Assembly: GCF_029433515.1 (NCBI RefSeq)
Contig: NZ_JAQTIG010000001.1
Coordinates: 372,001-436,000 of the forward strand
Origin: Lactobacillus sp. ESL0679
GTDB lineage: Bacteria > Bacillota > Bacilli > Lactobacillales > Lactobacillaceae
Length of the DNA: 64,000 bases
Reading direction: 5' to 3'
Part shown: positions 8,136-63,168 of the stretch, one piece after another
Numbering within the stretch: position 1 is the stretch's first letter
How the letters are laid out: each line of letters starts with the position of its first letter
Translations under genes and position numbers: made by a program
The notes under the pieces: generated by a model
Databases searched by the model: none
What the model saw: the letters and a program-made list of their open reading frames with translations, nothing else
What the model was told of the DNA's origin: nothing

Positions 8136-9305
8136 TTATCTAAAGCTATTAAGATATATCAAATTAGAATCATTTACACTAACCCGATTAAAATACTGTT
8201 CAAAAAATTGCTTATCCAAGTTAAATAATTGTAGTAAAAACTCTAATGAGATATGAAATTGCTCCAAAACATTTTGCAAACTAATTAAATCATGATCAAG
8301 TGTAAATTTAAACAGAGATAAAATTTTACTTGGTCGTATCGGTACTAATTTATCATCCAGCGGCTCAAATGTTTTATACCCCTTGTTAGTAAGTAATGCA
8401 AAGAAATGACTCTTATCATCCTTTGACAATAAGCCCAAGTTATAAGCTCTCATTGCCAATGTTTGTAATGCAACCTGATACTTTTTCTTCATCAATATAT
8501 ACGAATCTGGATTCCAAGGATTACTAATTTTACTAAAATCTGCGACAAATTTAGTTCGTGGTAACAAAAATGCTGCAGCAAACCTGTTAGCTTCCTTCTC
8601 AACAGCTTTTAAATTAGTATCTGATAACTTAGTCATATCAATATTAGTATGCAAAAAATAATGCCCTAACTCATGTGCAAGATCAAAATTCCTTCTTACT
8701 GCTGATTTCTTCTCCATACCCAAAACAATAAAAAAGAAACCATCTTTAGTTACTGCACTGTATGCATCAGTTTTATGCCCTAAGTCTTTTTCAAGTACAT
8801 AAATACCACTGTTTTCTATTATGTACATCAAATCGTGATTATCTTGAAACTGTAATTCTTGACGAACAAACTCTGCTATTTGCTCAATTGAAGTGGTAGC
8901 AATATTATTAAATATCATACTATTACACTTATCTTTAATAAGACTAATTTTAGCCGCAGGTACAATCACATGTTGCTCAAAATAATTTATAAAGTAATCC
9001 GCATAATTTAAAAAGACATGATCGTAATTTGTGTTTTTTTCTAGCCGTTTATCTGTAGAGCGATAAGCTATTTGTCTATCCGAAAAATTGTCCTTAAGAT
9101 ACTCCGCCGATAAAAAATATTTTGGTTTAACATGAAATAAATCGCTCAATCCTTTTAAAGTTTGAGTACTTGGTAAGATATTATTATTCTCATATTCAAC
9201 AATTTGCTTAGGTAAAATTCTTAAATAATTAGCTAATTCTTCATTAGAGAGGCCAGCTAATTTACGTAAATTACTTAGCTTCTCACCATAAAACATTTCT
9301 TTCAC
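8136..9305 (-). CDS. XRE-type regulator fused to ImmA/IrrE metallopeptidase
   Basis: 389 residues. An N-terminal XRE helix-turn-helix (about 7-62; LAGLSNEELANYL...IVEYENNN) is followed by a linker and an ImmA/IrrE (DUF955) zinc protease domain with AHELGHYFLH (His211, Glu212, His215) and a downstream EKEANRFAAAFLLP that carries the third ligand. A C-terminal helical extension covers about 295-389. Such fusions bind DNA and cleave a repressor or partner on a signal. The start is GTG at 9305 or ATG at 9296. It follows the 254-residue gene by 12 bases in one operon. It is AT-rich compared with its neighbours, which suggests transfer. Confidence 0.85.
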   Translation of the reverse strand: MKEMFYGEKLSNLRKLAGLSNEELANYLRILPKQIVEYENNNILPSTQTLKGLSDLFHVKPKYFLSAEYLKDNFSDRQIAYRSTDKRLEKNTNYDHVFLNYADYFINYFEQHVIVPAAKISLIKDKCNSMIFNNIATTSIEQIAEFVRQELQFQDNHDLMYIIENSGIYVLEKDLGHKTDAYSAVTKDGFFFIVLGMEKKSAVRRNFDLAHELGHYFLHTNIDMTKLSDTNLKAVEKEANRFAAAFLLPRTKFVADFSKISNPWNPDSYILMKKKYQVALQTLAMRAYNLGLLSKDDKSHFFALLTNKGYKTFEPLDDKLVPIRPSKILSLFKFTLDHDLISLQNVLEQFHISLEFLLQLFNLDKQFFEQYFNRVSVNDSNLIYLNSFR

Positions 9306-58881: not shown

Positions 58882-59724
58882 TTAGTTATTTGTAAACTCT
58901 TCAAGCTCCTTACCATAACTTTCCATTCCAACAATTTTTATAGTCTTTGCTATTTCTTTTACCTCATCAAGATGTTGTTCATTTTGATCGAAATGATACT
59001 TAACGATGTCTTTCAAGGCTGATATTACCATCTTGTAAAAAAATATTTCTGGCTTTATAGTGATCAAATTTGCACTATTAATATAAAATTCAGTTTTTTC
59101 AAATTGCCCATTTCTAATACAAAAAACAAGCATATTCACAATTATACCTAAGATTACTTTTTGTATTTTTTCTTCATTGGTACTTCGAAATTGCTTTATT
59201 ATCTTCTTTGATATAAACAAATTACTATCCAAATCATAAAAGCTCATAAAATTGCAATACACAATTAAGTTTTCTTCATTAAAGTTTGAAATATTAAATA
59301 CTTTTTCCTTTATCTTTTTTATTGTTTTTTTATCTAGACTATCAATACTTTTACTGCCTATTGCGATATATACATCAATTGCAAGTATTTTATCTTCTTT
59401 ATCGGGTAAATCACTTTCCGAAACAATTTTTCGAATTTGCTGTAATTCTTCCTTCGAATTTTGATAATATGCTTCTGTAATAAATTGATCTATTTCTTCT
59501 TCCTGTTGATGTAATGATTGATCTCCCTGATTTAATTTGCTAAAAAAATTAATTAATGGAACTTTATTAGCATGCAGCAAATCCACCAAGTCTTCTGCTG
59601 AAATTCTACTTAAATTTTTTTCCACTTTAGCACAAAATGATGAACTTATTACATCTCCAGCCCATTCCTTTTGCGTTTTCTTTTGCTGAATACGATAATC
59701 CTTAAGCAATTCACCAATTGTCAT
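58882..59724 (-). CDS. Rgg/GadR/MutR-family transcriptional regulator
   Basis: 280 residues. The XRE helix-turn-helix (MTIGELLKDYRIQQKKTQKEWAG) is at 1-60, followed by a helical repeat domain (about 65-280) that in this family binds short peptide pheromones (RRNPP group). It is about 60 percent identical to the frameshifted copy. A GGGAGA site precedes the ATG. No pheromone gene was identified, but small frames nearby are numerous. It is divergent from the efflux gene with shared boxes between. Confidence 0.82.
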   Translation of the reverse strand: MTIGELLKDYRIQQKKTQKEWAGDVISSSFCAKVEKNLSRISAEDLVDLLHANKVPLINFFSKLNQGDQSLHQQEEEIDQFITEAYYQNSKEELQQIRKIVSESDLPDKEDKILAIDVYIAIGSKSIDSLDKKTIKKIKEKVFNISNFNEENLIVYCNFMSFYDLDSNLFISKKIIKQFRSTNEEKIQKVILGIIVNMLVFCIRNGQFEKTEFYINSANLITIKPEIFFYKMVISALKDIVKYHFDQNEQHLDEVKEIAKTIKIVGMESYGKELEEFTNN

Positions 59725-59743
59725 TATTACTTCTCCCTCAAAT

Positions 59744-59777
59744 TGTCAGATATGATTACTTATTGTCAAATATGACA
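59744..59777. promoter_or_regulatory. Rgg box candidates in the divergent promoter region
   Basis: TGTCAGATATGATT (59744-59757, imperfect) and TGTCAAATATGACA (59764-59777, perfect) are spaced 20 bases, two helix turns. They lie upstream of TATAAT (59806-59811), the -10 of the MFS gene. Confidence 0.55.
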
Positions 59778-59841
59778 CTTTTCTCTACTTTTATTATAGC
59801 CAAAATATAATGAATACAAGATTAAATAAAGGAGAAAAATT

Positions 59842-61101
59842 ATGGACATTTTTTTAAAGAACAAAAATTATCGTAAATTCACAATTGCAAGTTGGCTATC
59901 TAGTGCTGGTAACATTCTTTTCTACTTAGCATTAATGACCTATGCTAGTAAACTTAAAAATTACGCCTTAGCTTTGTCATTAATTTCAATTATGGAAGCC
60001 GTTCCTGATTTACTTCAAAGTATCGGCGGCTACTTCGCTGACCGCACTAAAAATAAATTTCAAGTTATTATTCGCTTGGCAATTATCCGCTTTATTCTAT
60101 ATATGATTGTGGGTGCATTATTCGTCACTAACATTGCTGGCTGGAATTTAATATTACTGGTGATCGCTATTAACTTCTTTTCTGATGTTTCTGGCATGTA
60201 TTCCAGTGGCTTGCAAACACCATTAATTGTTGGTTTAGTTGGGGGAAATGAAGTATCCGTAGCAGAAGGATTCACAGGTGGCGTCTCCCAATTAATTTCA
60301 ATGGGTGCACAATTCGTCGGCTCAGCTTTACTGCTATTCATGTCATATTCTTCTCTAGCAATTGTTAACGCCTTAACCTTCTTAGTAGCTGGTTTAATCT
60401 ACGCTAATATTGCTAAAAACATTGAAAAGACACCTGCTAAAGATGAACTACAAACCGTTAACGATCAAAATTTCTTGGCAACTTTTAAATCTTCATTTAA
60501 TCAGGCTAAACAAGCTCATGGCTTGCTAACAATCGTTATAGTAGTTGCATTGCTAAATGGCGTTTTGTCTGCACTAGAACCATTAATTTCAATTTCTTTT
60601 GCAGCTAATAAAAATATGTTAATTGGTACCTTCAGTTTTACCATTGCAATTTTTGGAGCTGTCGTTTCTATTGGTACAGCACTGGGGAGTGCAATCGGTA
60701 CTAAGCTACTAAAGGACACATCATTATTTATTATCATCTTACTTGATACGATTTCAGGTATCCTTATGCTCGGATCAATGCTTATGCAAAATTCAATTGC
60801 CTGCTTCATCTTCGGTGCTATTCTTGGCTTTTTTGCCGGGACTGCTAGTCCAAAATTGTATCAATGGTTAGTACAGTCAGTTGATCGAAAAATTTTAGCA
60901 TCTACTATGGGAGCACTTAGTACTATTCTTGTCATCGCCGGTCCTTTAACAAATGCAATTTTTTCAAGTATTGCTGGTACAGCCGGTCTTAATTATGCCT
61001 TAATAGGTTTAATAGCACTCAGTGCTGTAACATTTTTAATTACATTAGTTGTTATGCTTAAAACTAGAAATAACAAACAAGTTGAGGTAACGGCAGAGTA
61101 A
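59842..61101 (+). CDS. MFS efflux transporter (MefA-like)
   Basis: 419 residues, 12 membrane helices, starting with FLKNKNYRKFTIASWLSSAGNILFYLALM as in macrolide and drug efflux MFS proteins of Firmicutes; the conserved loop has GGYFADRTKNK. AAGGAG precedes the ATG. It is transcribed divergently from the intact Rgg gene and likely under its control. It may export a peptide, drug or metabolite. Confidence 0.83.
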   Translation: MDIFLKNKNYRKFTIASWLSSAGNILFYLALMTYASKLKNYALALSLISIMEAVPDLLQSIGGYFADRTKNKFQVIIRLAIIRFILYMIVGALFVTNIAGWNLILLVIAINFFSDVSGMYSSGLQTPLIVGLVGGNEVSVAEGFTGGVSQLISMGAQFVGSALLLFMSYSSLAIVNALTFLVAGLIYANIAKNIEKTPAKDELQTVNDQNFLATFKSSFNQAKQAHGLLTIVIVVALLNGVLSALEPLISISFAANKNMLIGTFSFTIAIFGAVVSIGTALGSAIGTKLLKDTSLFIIILLDTISGILMLGSMLMQNSIACFIFGAILGFFAGTASPKLYQWLVQSVDRKILASTMGALSTILVIAGPLTNAIFSSIAGTAGLNYALIGLIALSAVTFLITLVVMLKTRNNKQVEVTAE

Positions 61102-61290
61102 ATTAAATAAATTGTCCATAAATAGTGTTCATCAAAAAATAATTATAAATATACTTGATTTTAATATAGCAAATAATAATATATTTATACATAAAAGAAA
61201 GTAGTACCTAATGTACTGAAGAAGTGCCTAACAAATGGCATCTTCCAGAGACATTCTATTAATAAAATGAAAAAACCAATAAGGAAGCCA

Positions 61291-61544: not shown

Positions 61545-61778
61545 AAATTACTGCAAGCTTTAGGACCTGGTATTAGACCACCACAATCTAAGGTTCTTAA
61601 GGGCTATAAATATCCCATTATGGAGTTGCGTCTTTTGCCGGATAGAATTTTTTATGCGAGTTACGATGTAAATAAATTTATCTTGTTAACCCACTATACA
61701 AAAAAGCAGAATAAAGCTGATAAGAAGCAAGTTGAACGAGCAATTAGTCTTTTAGAAAATTGGCTAGAAAGGCAGTGA
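61545..61778 (+). pseudogene. HigB/Gp49-like toxin lacking its N terminus
   Basis: 77 codons: ...LGPGIRPPQSKVLKG, ELRLLPDRIFYASY, FILLTHYTKKQNKADKKQVERA. This is the core and C terminus of a HigB-type mRNA interferase (phage Gp49-like). A stop lies just in front and the first third is missing. It is followed four bases later by the HigA gene. Confidence 0.7.
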
Positions 61779-61782
61779 TTAG

Positions 61783-62016
61783 ATGAAACTTAATGATATT
61801 GAGAGTAGTTTTTCGTCTATTTCAGAAGATGAAAAGGTAATTATTGACACGTTAGCTAAACTTTGTGCTGAAAGGATTAAGCGTAATATTCCACAAACAG
61901 TATTTGCGGAAAGAATTGGCATGAAGCAGCCACAATTAGCTAAATTGGAAATGTTAGATTCTGTACCAACATTAGTAACATTAAATCGGTATGCAAATGG
62001 ATTGGTTTCAGCTTAA
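61783..62016 (+). CDS. HigA-type XRE antitoxin
   Basis: 77 residues with a helix-turn-helix (FAERIGMKQPQLAKLEMLDSVPTLVTLNRYA), the usual late gene of a higBA operon. It appears intact while its toxin is broken, so it may persist as an orphan repressor. The ribosome site is poor (GTGATTAG), consistent with coupling to the toxin stop. Confidence 0.75.
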   Translation: MKLNDIESSFSSISEDEKVIIDTLAKLCAERIKRNIPQTVFAERIGMKQPQLAKLEMLDSVPTLVTLNRYANGLVSA

Positions 62017-62043: not shown

Positions 62044-62080
62044 AAAACAAAAATAGCCCAGGAAAACCTGAGCTATTTTG
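62044..62080 (-). terminator. Terminator of family 2 copy A
   Basis: AATAGCTCAGG / CCTGGGCTATT stem with a T-rich minus-strand tail, directly after the peptide gene; the equivalents for copies B and C are at about 62514-62536 and 62872-62900. Confidence 0.75.
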
Positions 62081-62086
62081 TTTGTT

Positions 62087-62242
62087 TTACTTGAAAATCC
62101 GTAGAATTTCTTTGAGTAAATCAGCTATTTTGTCGAGCAAATTCGCTAATTTATCCAAATCCGCACCTAAAGCCCGCAAAGCAGGCGTTAGCTCCGTTAG
62201 TAGTAAACAAATAAGAATTATAGAAAGCACGTTTTTTATCAT
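62087..62242 (-). CDS. Small amphipathic peptide, candidate type I toxin (family 2, copy A)
   Basis: 51 residues: a hydrophobic start helix (VLSIILICLLL) and a long amphipathic helix ending in Lys-rich ...LLKEILRIFK. AAGGAGG is nine bases from the ATG but is in a perfect 6-pair hairpin: CCTCCT (62260-62265 as read on minus) with AGGAGG (62250-62255), loop TGAA. The promoter on the minus strand is TGTTAAAAT followed by TAATTTGTACG. The divergent small RNA (62306-62419) carries 11 bases complementary to the mRNA 5' end. Confidence 0.75.
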   Translation of the reverse strand: MIKNVLSIILICLLLTELTPALRALGADLDKLANLLDKIADLLKEILRIFK

Positions 62243-62305
62243 GTTTTCACCTCCTTTCAAGGAGGATCAAAAACGTACAAATTAATTTTAACATATCTCA
62301 ATTAG

Positions 62306-62419
62306 TGTTATACTTAATTTAAGAATTATAGAAGTACATATTTATCATGTACAAAAACGTGCTCTGCAAGTTAATTGCTTGCAAGCCGGCTGAGCGATCC
62401 CAACGGATCGCTTTTTTTT
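62306..62419 (+). ncRNA. Divergent small RNA, candidate antitoxin of family 2 copy A
   Basis: Extended -10 TGTTATACT (62306-62314), about 98 bases of RNA, and the terminator GCGATCC/GGATCGC with T8 (62394-62419). CAAAAACGTGC (62352-62362) is complementary to bases 62268-62278 of the peptide mRNA with 11 consecutive pairs including one G-U. The 3' half (GCAAGCCGGCTGAGCGATCC) is identical in copy B. Confidence 0.6.
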
Positions 62420-62545
62420 ATCTGCTAAATTATTATTAATTACCTAGTTTTCTAAAAATTATATGACTTCCAATATTAATATGACTACTACAATATAATT
62501 AAACCAATTAAAAAAAGCGCAAGAAATCTTGCGCCTTTTCCTATA

Positions 62546-62650
62546 CTACTTGAGTAGTTTGTCGAGTATGGCAAGAATGTCATTCAACATCTGCTCAGCT
62601 TTTGAAAGCACAGCGTATAGTAAGAATAGTAGTACGATCTGACTAATCAT
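62546..62650 (-). CDS. Small amphipathic peptide, candidate type I toxin (family 2, copy B)
   Basis: 34 residues from ATG 62650 (AAGGAGG eight bases upstream). IVLLFLLYAVL is followed by an amphipathic helix ending LAILDKLLK, like copy A but without the Pro-containing middle. The ribosome site pairs with CACCTTCTT 25 bases upstream. The promoter is TGATAAAAT on the minus strand with the same TAATTTGTACG after it. Confidence 0.75.
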   Translation of the reverse strand: MISQIVLLFLLYAVLSKAEQMLNDILAILDKLLK

Positions 62651-62742
62651 CTTCTTCACCTCCTTAACTTGAAAGATAATCAGTCCTTCAAGAAGGTGCG
62701 CCAAAAGCGTACAAATTAATTTTATCAAAATCAAGCAGTATA

Positions 62743-62852
62743 TGATATAATGAAATTAAGAATAGTAGTGCATGGCTAATCATCCATGTAAGCGTGCATG
62801 CGACCTAATCAATCGCAAGCCGGCTGAGCGATCCCAACGGATCGCTTTTTTA
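62743..62852 (+). ncRNA. Divergent small RNA, candidate antitoxin of family 2 copy B
   Basis: Extended -10 TGATATAAT (62743-62751) and the same terminator GCGATCC/GGATCGC with T6 (62827-62852). AAGCGTGC (62790-62797) is complementary to the peptide mRNA 5' end (62705-62712) over eight bases. Here one A-U pair of copy A is a G-C pair: both sides changed together. Confidence 0.6.
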
Positions 62853-62904
62853 TTTTTAATTTTATACAAAAACAGCCCAGGTTTCCCTGAGTTGCTTTGA
62901 TGTT

Positions 62905-62973
62905 CTACTTGAGTAAATTCTCGAAAAATTCAATGAGTTTTTCGAGAATGTGCTCTGTCTTAGTCAAGAGGCA
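62905..62973 (-). pseudogene. Truncated family 2 peptide (copy C)
   Basis: The minus strand has the last 21 codons (LTKTEHILEKLIEFFENLLK) in frame and its terminator, but the start, ribosome site, promoter and divergent RNA are gone. The sequence beyond 62973 is unrelated. Confidence 0.7.
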
Positions 62974-63168
62974 TTGATGGACACAGTTGGTCGTCTTTCC
63001 TTATATGAAAATATAGCTTTAATAATTTATTCTCACTATTAGTTAACCGTGCTTTTTGCAATTTTCTTATCCTAAAATAAATTTGTTCATTTGCTAAATA
63101 CAAGATATACTAATTAGGCCAAACAAGAGTTTGCCCACAATTTTATCTTTAGCAAGGAACTGATTACT

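What the first reader, a model, noticed from the sequence alone, without database searches (positions are those of the whole stretch)
62044..62975. Array of small membrane-peptide genes with divergent small RNAs and a compensatory base change
Three copies of one peptide family lie in 0.9 kb. Copies A and B each have, on the other strand and reading away, a small RNA of about 95 bases with an extended -10 promoter and an identical terminator. Bases of the RNA (62352-62362 and 62790-62797) are complementary to the 5' end of the facing peptide mRNA (62268-62278 and 62705-62712). Between copies, the A-U pair of copy A is a G-C pair in copy B, so both sides changed together. In Gram-negatives (tisB/istR, shoB/ohsC, zorO/orzO) toxins have divergent trans-acting antisense RNAs. 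The Gram-positive type I systems I know (par/Fst, txpA/ratA, bsrG/SR4) are convergent or overlapping. This divergent layout looks new for lactobacilli.
Basis: partly seen in the sequence, partly recalled or inferred. Interest (0 to 1): 0.87.

Follow-up and report, generated by a model that had tools for sequence, protein, structure and literature searches.

The report
Divergent RNA-antitoxin toxin modules in Lactobacillus
These bacteria appear to carry many copies of a tiny toxin-like gene, each probably held in check by its own small RNA, which is transcribed in the opposite direction and matches the gene's start; our literature searches found no such layout in this group of bacteria.

Summary
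The finding is real and larger than described. Copies A and B each pair a short hydrophobic-peptide gene (minus strand) with a divergent ~95-nt plus-strand RNA; copy C is a remnant. The main pairing was missed: the RNA's first ~30 nt are a diverged direct repeat of the antisense strand over the toxin start codon. In 26 intact modules from Lactobacillus genomes, this start-codon pairing ranks first for the RNA's own mRNA in 26 of 26, against mRNAs of modules under 70% alike. Transition differences give G.U rather than A.C pairs 46 to 7. The 5'-end pairing covaries but is less selective. An RNA model finds the sRNA in 23 of 75 Lactobacillus genomes; of 397 family genomes, the 8 with a match are all Lactobacillus. 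Of 42 toxin-like ORFs, 11 read as deletion scars fused through the repeats. Best reading: a new divergent type I toxin-antitoxin variant, with logic like par/Fst (direct repeat over the start codon) but turned inside out and with peptides not matching Fst. Expression, toxicity and neutralisation are not shown.

The parts
62087..62242 (-). Toxin-like peptide A, 51 aa, MIKNVLSIILICLLLTELTPALRALGADLDKLANLLDKIADLLKEILRIFK
   Evidence: ORF; long-type profile A1, 8 clear matches in 75 genus genomes; hydrophobic N-terminal half
62250..62255 (-). Shine-Dalgarno AGGAGG of A, inside a predicted CCUCCU/AGGAGG hairpin
   Evidence: sequence, fold
62285..62290 (-). -10 (TAAAAT) of toxin A promoter; predicted +1 at 62278
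   Evidence: anchored by eye; same 6-nt spacing used for the 26 intact modules; inference, no mapped 5' end
62268..62278 (-). 5' end of toxin A mRNA: predicted to pair in cis with codons 3-6 and in trans with sRNA A segment 2
62050..62079 (-). Terminator of toxin A mRNA
62212..62244 (+). Direct-repeat copy over toxin A start codon (antisense of the initiation region); partner of 62321-62351
   Evidence: (14-nt core)
62309..62314 (+). Extended -10 (TGTTATACT from 62306) of sRNA A; predicted +1 at 62321
   Evidence: inference
62321..62419 (+). sRNA A (99 nt): segment 1 at 62321-62351 antisense to the toxin start, segment 2 at 62352-62362 antisense to the mRNA 5' end, hairpin 62365-62383, palindromic linker 62384-62391, terminator 62392-62413
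62546..62650 (-). Toxin-like peptide B, 34 aa, MISQIVLLFLLYAVLSKAEQMLNDILAILDKLLK
62705..62712 (-). 5' end of toxin B mRNA (predicted +1 at 62712; -10 at 62719-62724)
62510..62541 (-). Terminator of toxin B mRNA
62625..62651 (+). Direct-repeat copy over toxin B start codon; partner of 62758-62784
62746..62751 (+). Extended -10 (TGATATAAT from 62743) of sRNA B; predicted +1 at 62758
62758..62851 (+). sRNA B (94 nt): segment 1 at 62758-62784, segment 2 at 62790-62797 (complementary, but not formed in the predicted complex), hairpin, palindromic linker 62818-62825, terminator 62826-62847
62905..62967 (-). Copy C: 20-aa C-terminal remnant of a short-type peptide, no start region, no sRNA; terminator-like site at 62876-62891

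Best explanation
Each intact module is a type I toxin-antitoxin-like pair with a divergent, non-overlapping antitoxin. A back-to-back promoter pair makes (i) a message for a 27-52 aa hydrophobic peptide and (ii) a ~95-nt RNA that reads away and ends at its own terminator. The RNA's 5' part carries two antisense segments in the right order to clamp the message. Segment 1 (~25-33 nt) pairs with the start codon and first codons. Segment 2 (~8-12 nt) pairs, in most modules, with the very 5' end of the message. The Shine-Dalgarno region is looped out between them. This should block ribosome loading and may expose the message to RNase III. Tentatively, the message alone folds closed, its 5' end against its start region, so it would need opening or processing first. 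The peptide, when made, most likely damages the cell's own membrane, and the module would stabilise the plasmid or segment that carries it. The antisense match is written as a direct repeat, so each module has a private pair. The same repeats let the module delete itself, taking both promoters at once. Shown by sequence: anatomy, conserved and pair-specific complementarity, covariation, deletion scars. Inferred: transcription, repression, toxicity, stabilisation.
For: (1) 26 intact modules with divergent promoters; distance between predicted +1s 41-46 nt in 19, 31 nt in 5, 83-87 nt in 2. (2) Segment 1 duplex energy ranks first for the cognate mRNA in 26 of 26, against modules under 70% alike; 12 representatives mean -31.6 vs -15.7 (sd 1.6) permuted, 0 of 20000 as low. 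(3) sRNA-first test without hand anchors: 23 of 70 sRNA copies have a repeat scoring 15 or more over a start codon with Shine-Dalgarno, vs 1 of 3749 random non-cognate pairings, similar segments skipped. (4) Transition differences from perfect antisense give G.U 46 vs A.C 7 (26 modules); 23 vs 4 in representatives, p=3e-4; 31 more differences are transversions. (5) Segment 2: representatives mean -16.4 vs -11.6 (sd 0.74), 0 of 20000; mRNA positions 6, 7, 8 and 10 exchange pair types. (6) Predicted complexes: segment 1 formed in 26 of 26, segment 2 in 21 of 26. (7) sRNA 3' half: 11 pairs, 8 with both-side changes. (8) Four modules of the window's own genome: cognate best duplexes -38.2 to -43.0, non-cognate -16.5 to -28.2 kcal/mol. 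(9) 11 of 42 toxin-like ORFs are fusions through the repeat; L008 is a clean 108-nt deletion of the A locus. (10) An intact module sits on a plasmid of Lactobacillus sp. ESL0731.
Against: No transcript, toxicity or repression data. Promoters lack clear -35 boxes and were anchored by eye. Segment 2 alone is not very selective: cognate first in 10 of 26, top three in 16 of 26; L013 and L024 pair poorly, and it does not form in 5 of 26 predicted complexes, copy B among them. The closed mRNA fold is weakly supported: the 5' end reaches the start region at P over 0.5 (best of its first 8 nt) in 22 of 26, but in 12 representatives swapped 5' ends do nearly as well (mean 0.58 own vs 0.48 swapped; own higher in 71 of 132), so it may only reflect shared GYRYG/CGUGC cores. 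The modules share ancestry, so counts are not independent; 12 representatives lessen but do not remove this. Long duplexes also suit an RNA-decay mechanism. The range is patchy (23 of 75), so the modules are dispensable. Confidence lowered from 0.80 to 0.78 after the controls.
Confidence: 0.78

Rival explanations
1. Divergent antisense RNA controls a non-toxic small membrane peptide (for example an envelope-stress or signalling peptide), so the pairing is real but it is not a toxin-antitoxin system.
For: No peptide tested matches a known toxin family in Pfam or NCBIfam and toxicity is untested. An Rgg regulator gene lies nearby in the window and Rgg genes lie on the ESL0731 plasmid; recalled: some Rgg proteins are paired with short hydrophobic peptides.
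Against: Pair-specific antisense written into many scattered copies, plasmid carriage, and frequent inactivation (11 of 42 repeat-fusion scars; two loci with an insertion at the toxin +1) are what type I toxins show. I did not look for Rgg genes beside the other modules.
Confidence: 0.16
2. The direct repeats are only a duplication that founded the sRNA (or recent gene conversion), with no RNA pairing function.
For: A repeat arising by duplication would start out identical, and repeats can be homogenised by recombination.
Against: Transition differences between the repeats are biased 46:7 to the direction that keeps a G.U pair, which neither duplication nor conversion predicts. A second, separate segment covaries with the mRNA 5' end. 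By eye, the repeat begins at or within a few nt of the predicted sRNA +1.
Confidence: 0.04
3. It is a rearranged member of the known par/Fst (Lpt) family rather than a separate lineage.
For: Same logic: direct repeat over the start codon, hairpin at the Shine-Dalgarno; par loci occur in lactobacilli (PMC7472228 introduction and passages, PMC5608710 passages).
Against: Promoters are divergent, toxin and sRNA of A and B have separate terminators, A and B lack the P/D/S/TXXXG motif and no Fst match appears in Pfam.
Confidence: 0.08

Closest known systems
par/Fst of pAD1 and Lpt/RNAII of Lacticaseibacillus (type I)
   Same: Small hydrophobic peptide; antitoxin RNA complementary, through DNA direct repeats, to a stretch including the toxin start codon; toxin mRNA structures at the Shine-Dalgarno and 5' end (PMC7472228 introduction read, PMC5608710 passages).
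   Different: There the RNAs converge; in par they share a bidirectional terminator and first meet there. Here they diverge, have separate terminators, and the second contact is the mRNA's 5' end. A and B show no Fst match in Pfam and lack the motif.
tisB/istR-1, shoB/ohsC, zor/orz, dinQ/agrB (E. coli) and timP/timR (Salmonella)
   Same: Divergent antitoxin RNA acting by base pairing (PMC4147584 passages; PMC8167048 passages and PMC11228461 abstract for timP/timR).
   Different: In the four E. coli systems the RNA pairs in a long 5' UTR and does not overlap the initiation site or coding region (PMC4147584). Here it covers the start codon, with a second contact at the 5' end, in a leader of about 36-68 nt, in Lactobacillus.
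aapA/IsoA (Helicobacter) and hok/Sok
   Same: Toxin mRNA held closed by a long-distance self-pairing (PMC6733600 passages); only tentatively so here.
   Different: There the 3' end closes the initiation region, and the IsoA antitoxin is encoded overlapping. Here the candidate partner is the 5' end.
Ibs/Sib (E. coli)
   Same: Recalled, not tested: antitoxin RNA with two target-recognition domains that discriminate paralogues.
   Different: Recalled: Sib RNAs are encoded opposite their targets; these are not.

Membership tests
Type I toxin-antitoxin (general) | Small hydrophobic peptide gene | tested here: met
   26 peptides of 27-52 aa, best 15-residue hydropathy 1.25-3.14
Type I toxin-antitoxin (general) | Antitoxin RNA complementary to the toxin mRNA | tested here: met
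   Sequence level only:
Type I toxin-antitoxin (general) | Peptide is toxic when overexpressed | not testable with these tools
   needs an experiment
Type I toxin-antitoxin (general) | RNA prevents toxin synthesis in the cell | not testable with these tools
   needs an experiment
par/Fst | Convergent promoters | tested here: not met
   Divergent in the 26 intact modules
par/Fst | Shared bidirectional terminator | tested here: not met
   Separate terminators for toxin and sRNA in A and B; not scanned in the other modules
par/Fst | Fst peptide family / P/D/S/TXXXG motif | tested here: not met
   No Fst family among Pfam matches of A and B (E up to 1) or of 17 short-type peptides (E up to 0.1); that Pfam holds an Fst model is recalled. 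Motif checked by eye in A and B only: absent (B has no G)
par/Fst | Direct repeats giving complementarity over the start codon | tested here: met
tisB/istR-like divergent systems | Divergent, non-overlapping antitoxin gene | tested here: met
tisB/istR-like divergent systems | Antitoxin pairs upstream, not at the initiation site or coding region | tested here: not met
   Segment 1 covers the start codon
Known RNA families (Rfam 15) | Match at gathering score | tested here: not met
   0 matches in the whole window

The most novel reading that the evidence does not exclude
A Lactobacillus-restricted radiation of 'inside-out par' type I modules. The antitoxin's 5' half is a drifting direct-repeat copy of the antisense of its toxin's start, plus a second segment against the mRNA's 5' end. 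Each copy thereby has a private, retargetable pair, while the repeats form a built-in deletion switch that removes both promoters at once. The conserved palindromic linker may make the antitoxin act as a dimer.
Probability: 0.5. Interest if true: 0.82.

Novelty: new variant of a known kind. Interest (0 to 1): 0.72.

Why it matters
Reviews state that type I systems of Gram-positives overlap at their 3' ends (all those described by 2014, PMC4147584; 'most', PMC8167048; passages read). A divergent, repeat-written antitoxin would be another way to build one and a simple route by which paralogues gain orthogonal pairs, with many natural examples for reading coevolution of RNA pairs. The deletion scars give a handle on how such modules die. 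Carriers include a strain whose record names the bee Scaptotrigona polysticta as source, with modules on a small plasmid, so plasmid stability and engineering of such symbionts may be affected. None of the 12 features PLSDB lists on that plasmid overlaps the modules at 722-1234 or 8659-9171; its gene table is incomplete.

Tried and rejected
Rejected: an ordinary protein family (no Pfam, NCBIfam or PHROGs match of weight); a known RNA (Rfam 0 matches); phage origin (no phage match for A or B; no viral-contig match to the sRNA core pattern; none confirmed for A; B could not be scanned there); presence elsewhere in the family. For the last: sRNA model, 8 of 397 genomes, all same genus, stricter filters and E 1e-4; short-type profile, 6 of 397, the one outside the genus lies in a 410-aa frame, was not examined further and is taken as chance. 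Long-type profile was not run beyond the genus. The genome-contig scan for names gave 12 stretches; one is Lactobacillus sp. ESL0246 (contig length equals G042:C2), and the other 11, in other bacteria, were not examined and are taken as chance matches to 19 bases. A scan for -35/-10 promoters gave nothing clearly above chance. A contact between sRNA linker and toxin terminator was considered by eye and dropped: B has a different toxin terminator but the same linker as A. In one search several ORFs gave no repeat: the deletion fusions, three toxins without an adjacent sRNA (L026, L069, L088), remnant C and a probably unrelated ORF (L072). L061 also scored poorly there (10, rank 23) but ranked first by energy. 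In one search a fifth own-genome locus (L085) could not be anchored because its toxin promoter differs; its column is void and only 4 x 4 is used. The pair-specific version of the closed-mRNA idea was tested and not supported.

Full report
What was checked. The window lies on contig C1 of a 2.05-Mb genome; the genus is taken as Lactobacillus from named relatives. At 62044-62975 two minus-strand ORFs code for hydrophobic peptides, A (51 aa, 62242-62087) and B (34 aa, 62650-62546). Each faces a divergent plus-strand stretch with an extended -10 and an intrinsic terminator. Copy C is a 20-aa tail without start region, Shine-Dalgarno or sRNA.

The repeat search and a targeted alignment show that the first ~30 nt of each sRNA are a direct repeat of the plus strand over the toxin's start: 62321-62351 repeats 62212-62244, and 62758-62784 repeats 62625-62651. 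A direct repeat of the antisense strand means the sRNA is complementary to the start codon and first codons of the toxin mRNA. In the sRNA this segment 1 precedes segment 2 (the 5'-end match). In the mRNA the partners lie in the matching antiparallel order, so one RNA could clamp both, looping out the Shine-Dalgarno region. Co-folding gives -71.6 kcal/mol for A (-33.0 and -17.8 for the separate RNAs) and -79.2 for B (-33.8 and -23.4). In A both contacts form. In B segment 2 stays in the sRNA's own structure. Over the 26 modules below, segment 1 forms in 26 predicted complexes and segment 2 (6 or more pairs) in 21.

Relatives. BLAST of the region matched 14 of 75 genomes of the genus. Profiles of the long and short peptides matched 10 of 75 at E 0.01 or better (8 clear) and 37 of 75 at E 0.1 or better (many weak ones probably chance). 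From the fetched loci, 42 non-redundant toxin-like ORFs were taken. By reading the upstream DNA I sort them as 26 with promoters, leader and divergent sRNA; 11 in which the coding sequence runs into the sRNA through the repeat (L008, L064, L009 twice, L025, L028, L091, L094, L095, L075, L086); 3 without an adjacent sRNA; window copy C; and 1 probably unrelated (L072). In two of those three (L088, and L026 seen again in L091) an element with a 465/477-aa frame sits at the toxin mRNA start, between 8-bp copies of the target. A few 'intact' modules are decaying: L024 has a stop after its GTG start.

Architecture. The +1 sites were anchored by eye, 6 nt past a -10 on each strand. They are 41-46 nt apart in 19 modules, 31 nt in 5 and 83-87 nt in 2; sRNAs are 76-108 nt.

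Statistics for segment 1. Duplex energy of sRNA nt 1-36 with the start region ranks first for the cognate mRNA in 26 of 26, among mRNAs whose sRNA 5' parts are under 70% identical. For 12 representatives the mean is -31.6 against -15.7 (sd 1.6) for permuted partners, 0 of 20000 as low. A test that starts from sRNA copies found by their 3' half and needs no hand anchors gives 23 of 70 copies with a repeat scoring 15 or more over a start codon with Shine-Dalgarno. The other copies include scars and sRNAs without a toxin, and only 38 of 70 upstream regions hold any such start. Random non-cognate pairings, similar segments skipped, give 1 of 3749. Where segment 1 departs from perfect antisense by a transition, it gives G.U 46 times and A.C 7 times (26 modules), or 23 and 4 (12 representatives, p = 3e-4). 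Thirty-one further differences are transversions. This is the signature of selection for pairing, although the modules are related and the counts are not independent.

Statistics for segment 2. Cognate energies are better on average (representatives -16.4 vs -11.6, sd 0.74, 0 of 20000), but the cognate ranks first in only 10 of 26 and within the top three in 16 of 26. Positions 1-5 (GYRYG) are nearly constant. Positions 6, 7, 8 and 10 of the mRNA vary together with the sRNA: position 6 U-A 14 and C-G 9; position 8 U-A 16, A-U 8 and C-G 1; position 10 U-A 9 and G-C 9 (best window chosen per locus; 2, 3, 1 and 4 of 26 do not pair at positions 6, 7, 8 and 10, and more at 11 and 12).

mRNA folding, a weak point. 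In 22 of 26 leaders the 5' end reaches the start region in cis at P over 0.5, taking the best of its first 8 nt. The exceptions are B (0.43), L087 and L024 (start mis-set or decaying) and L070. A control made afterwards does not support a pair-specific version: in 12 representatives the mean P is 0.58 with the own 5' end and 0.48 with swapped 5' ends, own higher in 71 of 132. Closure may therefore only reflect the shared GYRYG and CGUGC cores.

sRNA 3' half. 11 consensus pairs, 8 with both-side changes. The linker before the terminator holds a palindrome of 6 or more nt in 20 of 26 and of 8 or more in 13 of 26, with at least five different sequences; shuffled linkers give 24% and 6%. Its role is unknown.

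Range. The covariance model finds 68 places in 23 of 75 genomes of the genus. In 397 genomes of the family, 40 genera, it finds 8 genomes, all of this genus; by my count of the listing about 372 genomes of 39 other genera have none (stricter filters, E 1e-4). The window's own genome has 7 sRNA places, and four of its modules are mutually selective: cognate -38.2 to -43.0, non-cognate -16.5 to -28.2 kcal/mol. The ESL0731 plasmid has one intact module and one deletion fusion, each twice, because the record is a 99.7%-identical dimer of 7.9 kb. Window 59110-61124 (part of an Rgg gene and an MFS gene) is 88% identical to the plasmid stretch beside its modules, in the same relative order, which suggests movement between plasmid and chromosome.

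Deletion scars. L008 (genome G052) is the A locus of G049 and G000 with 108 nt missing between the repeat copies: both promoters, the Shine-Dalgarno and the toxin start are gone while the aligned flanks are conserved. L094 and L095 are fused relatives of intact L092, whose peptide is closely similar. Recurrent loss through the repeats is therefore seen; whether it is adaptive is not known.

Mechanism and known systems. The best reading is an antisense-controlled toxin: type I logic, par-like in that a direct repeat covers the start codon (PMC7472228 introduction; PMC5608710 passages), tisB-like only in being divergent (PMC4147584 passages). It fails the par/Fst tests of convergent promoters, shared terminator (A, B) and Fst peptide/motif (A, B). 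It fails the tisB-type feature of pairing away from the start. Peptide toxicity and RNA action are inferred. I did not find this layout described for Gram-positives in the held library (searches; two key papers, on type I candidates and on T1TAdb, are not held). A later review says 'most' Gram-positive systems overlap at 3' ends (PMC8167048 passages), and one says bsrE/bsrH-like systems occur in Lactobacillus (PMC6562991 passages), so absence from print is not proven.

Noticed in passing
sRNA linkers, e.g. window 62384-62391 and 62818-62825: Between the first hairpin and the terminator the sRNAs carry a varying palindrome (AGCCGGCT, AGGCGCCT, AGGTACCT, AGACGTCT, CGCGCG); 6 or more nt in 20 of 26, shuffled linkers 24%. 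Dimer site? Unexplained.
   Followed up: partly
L088 1517-3091; L091 1713-3289: The same kind of transposase-like element (465 and 477 aa frames, similar by eye, family not tested) sits at the toxin mRNA start in two different modules, flanked by 8-bp copies of the target.
   Followed up: partly
window 59110-61124 and L163 (NZ_CP113922): Rgg-MFS block next to the modules is 88% identical to a Lactobacillus sp. ESL0731 plasmid stretch carrying the same kind of modules; that plasmid record is a near-identical 7.9-kb dimer.
   Followed up: partly
L096 (G000:C3, 8577 b): Small contig of the same genome, about 93% identical over 3.5 kb to the ESL0731 plasmid, with an intact module (toxin MREVVILFLLYAVLAKAEQVLSDILAILDRLLK); likely a plasmid.
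   Followed up: partly
window 61620-62016: Short Gp49-like (52 aa, matches only the second half of the profile) and HTH_3 (77 aa) genes just upstream of copy A; looks like a type II toxin-antitoxin pair with a truncated toxin.
   Followed up: no
L053/L121 (G072), L137 (G068): A third, shorter peptide type starting with TTG (DDMTIFLxCVLLHELHLVLRELNNLLDK) with the same divergent sRNA design.
   Followed up: partly
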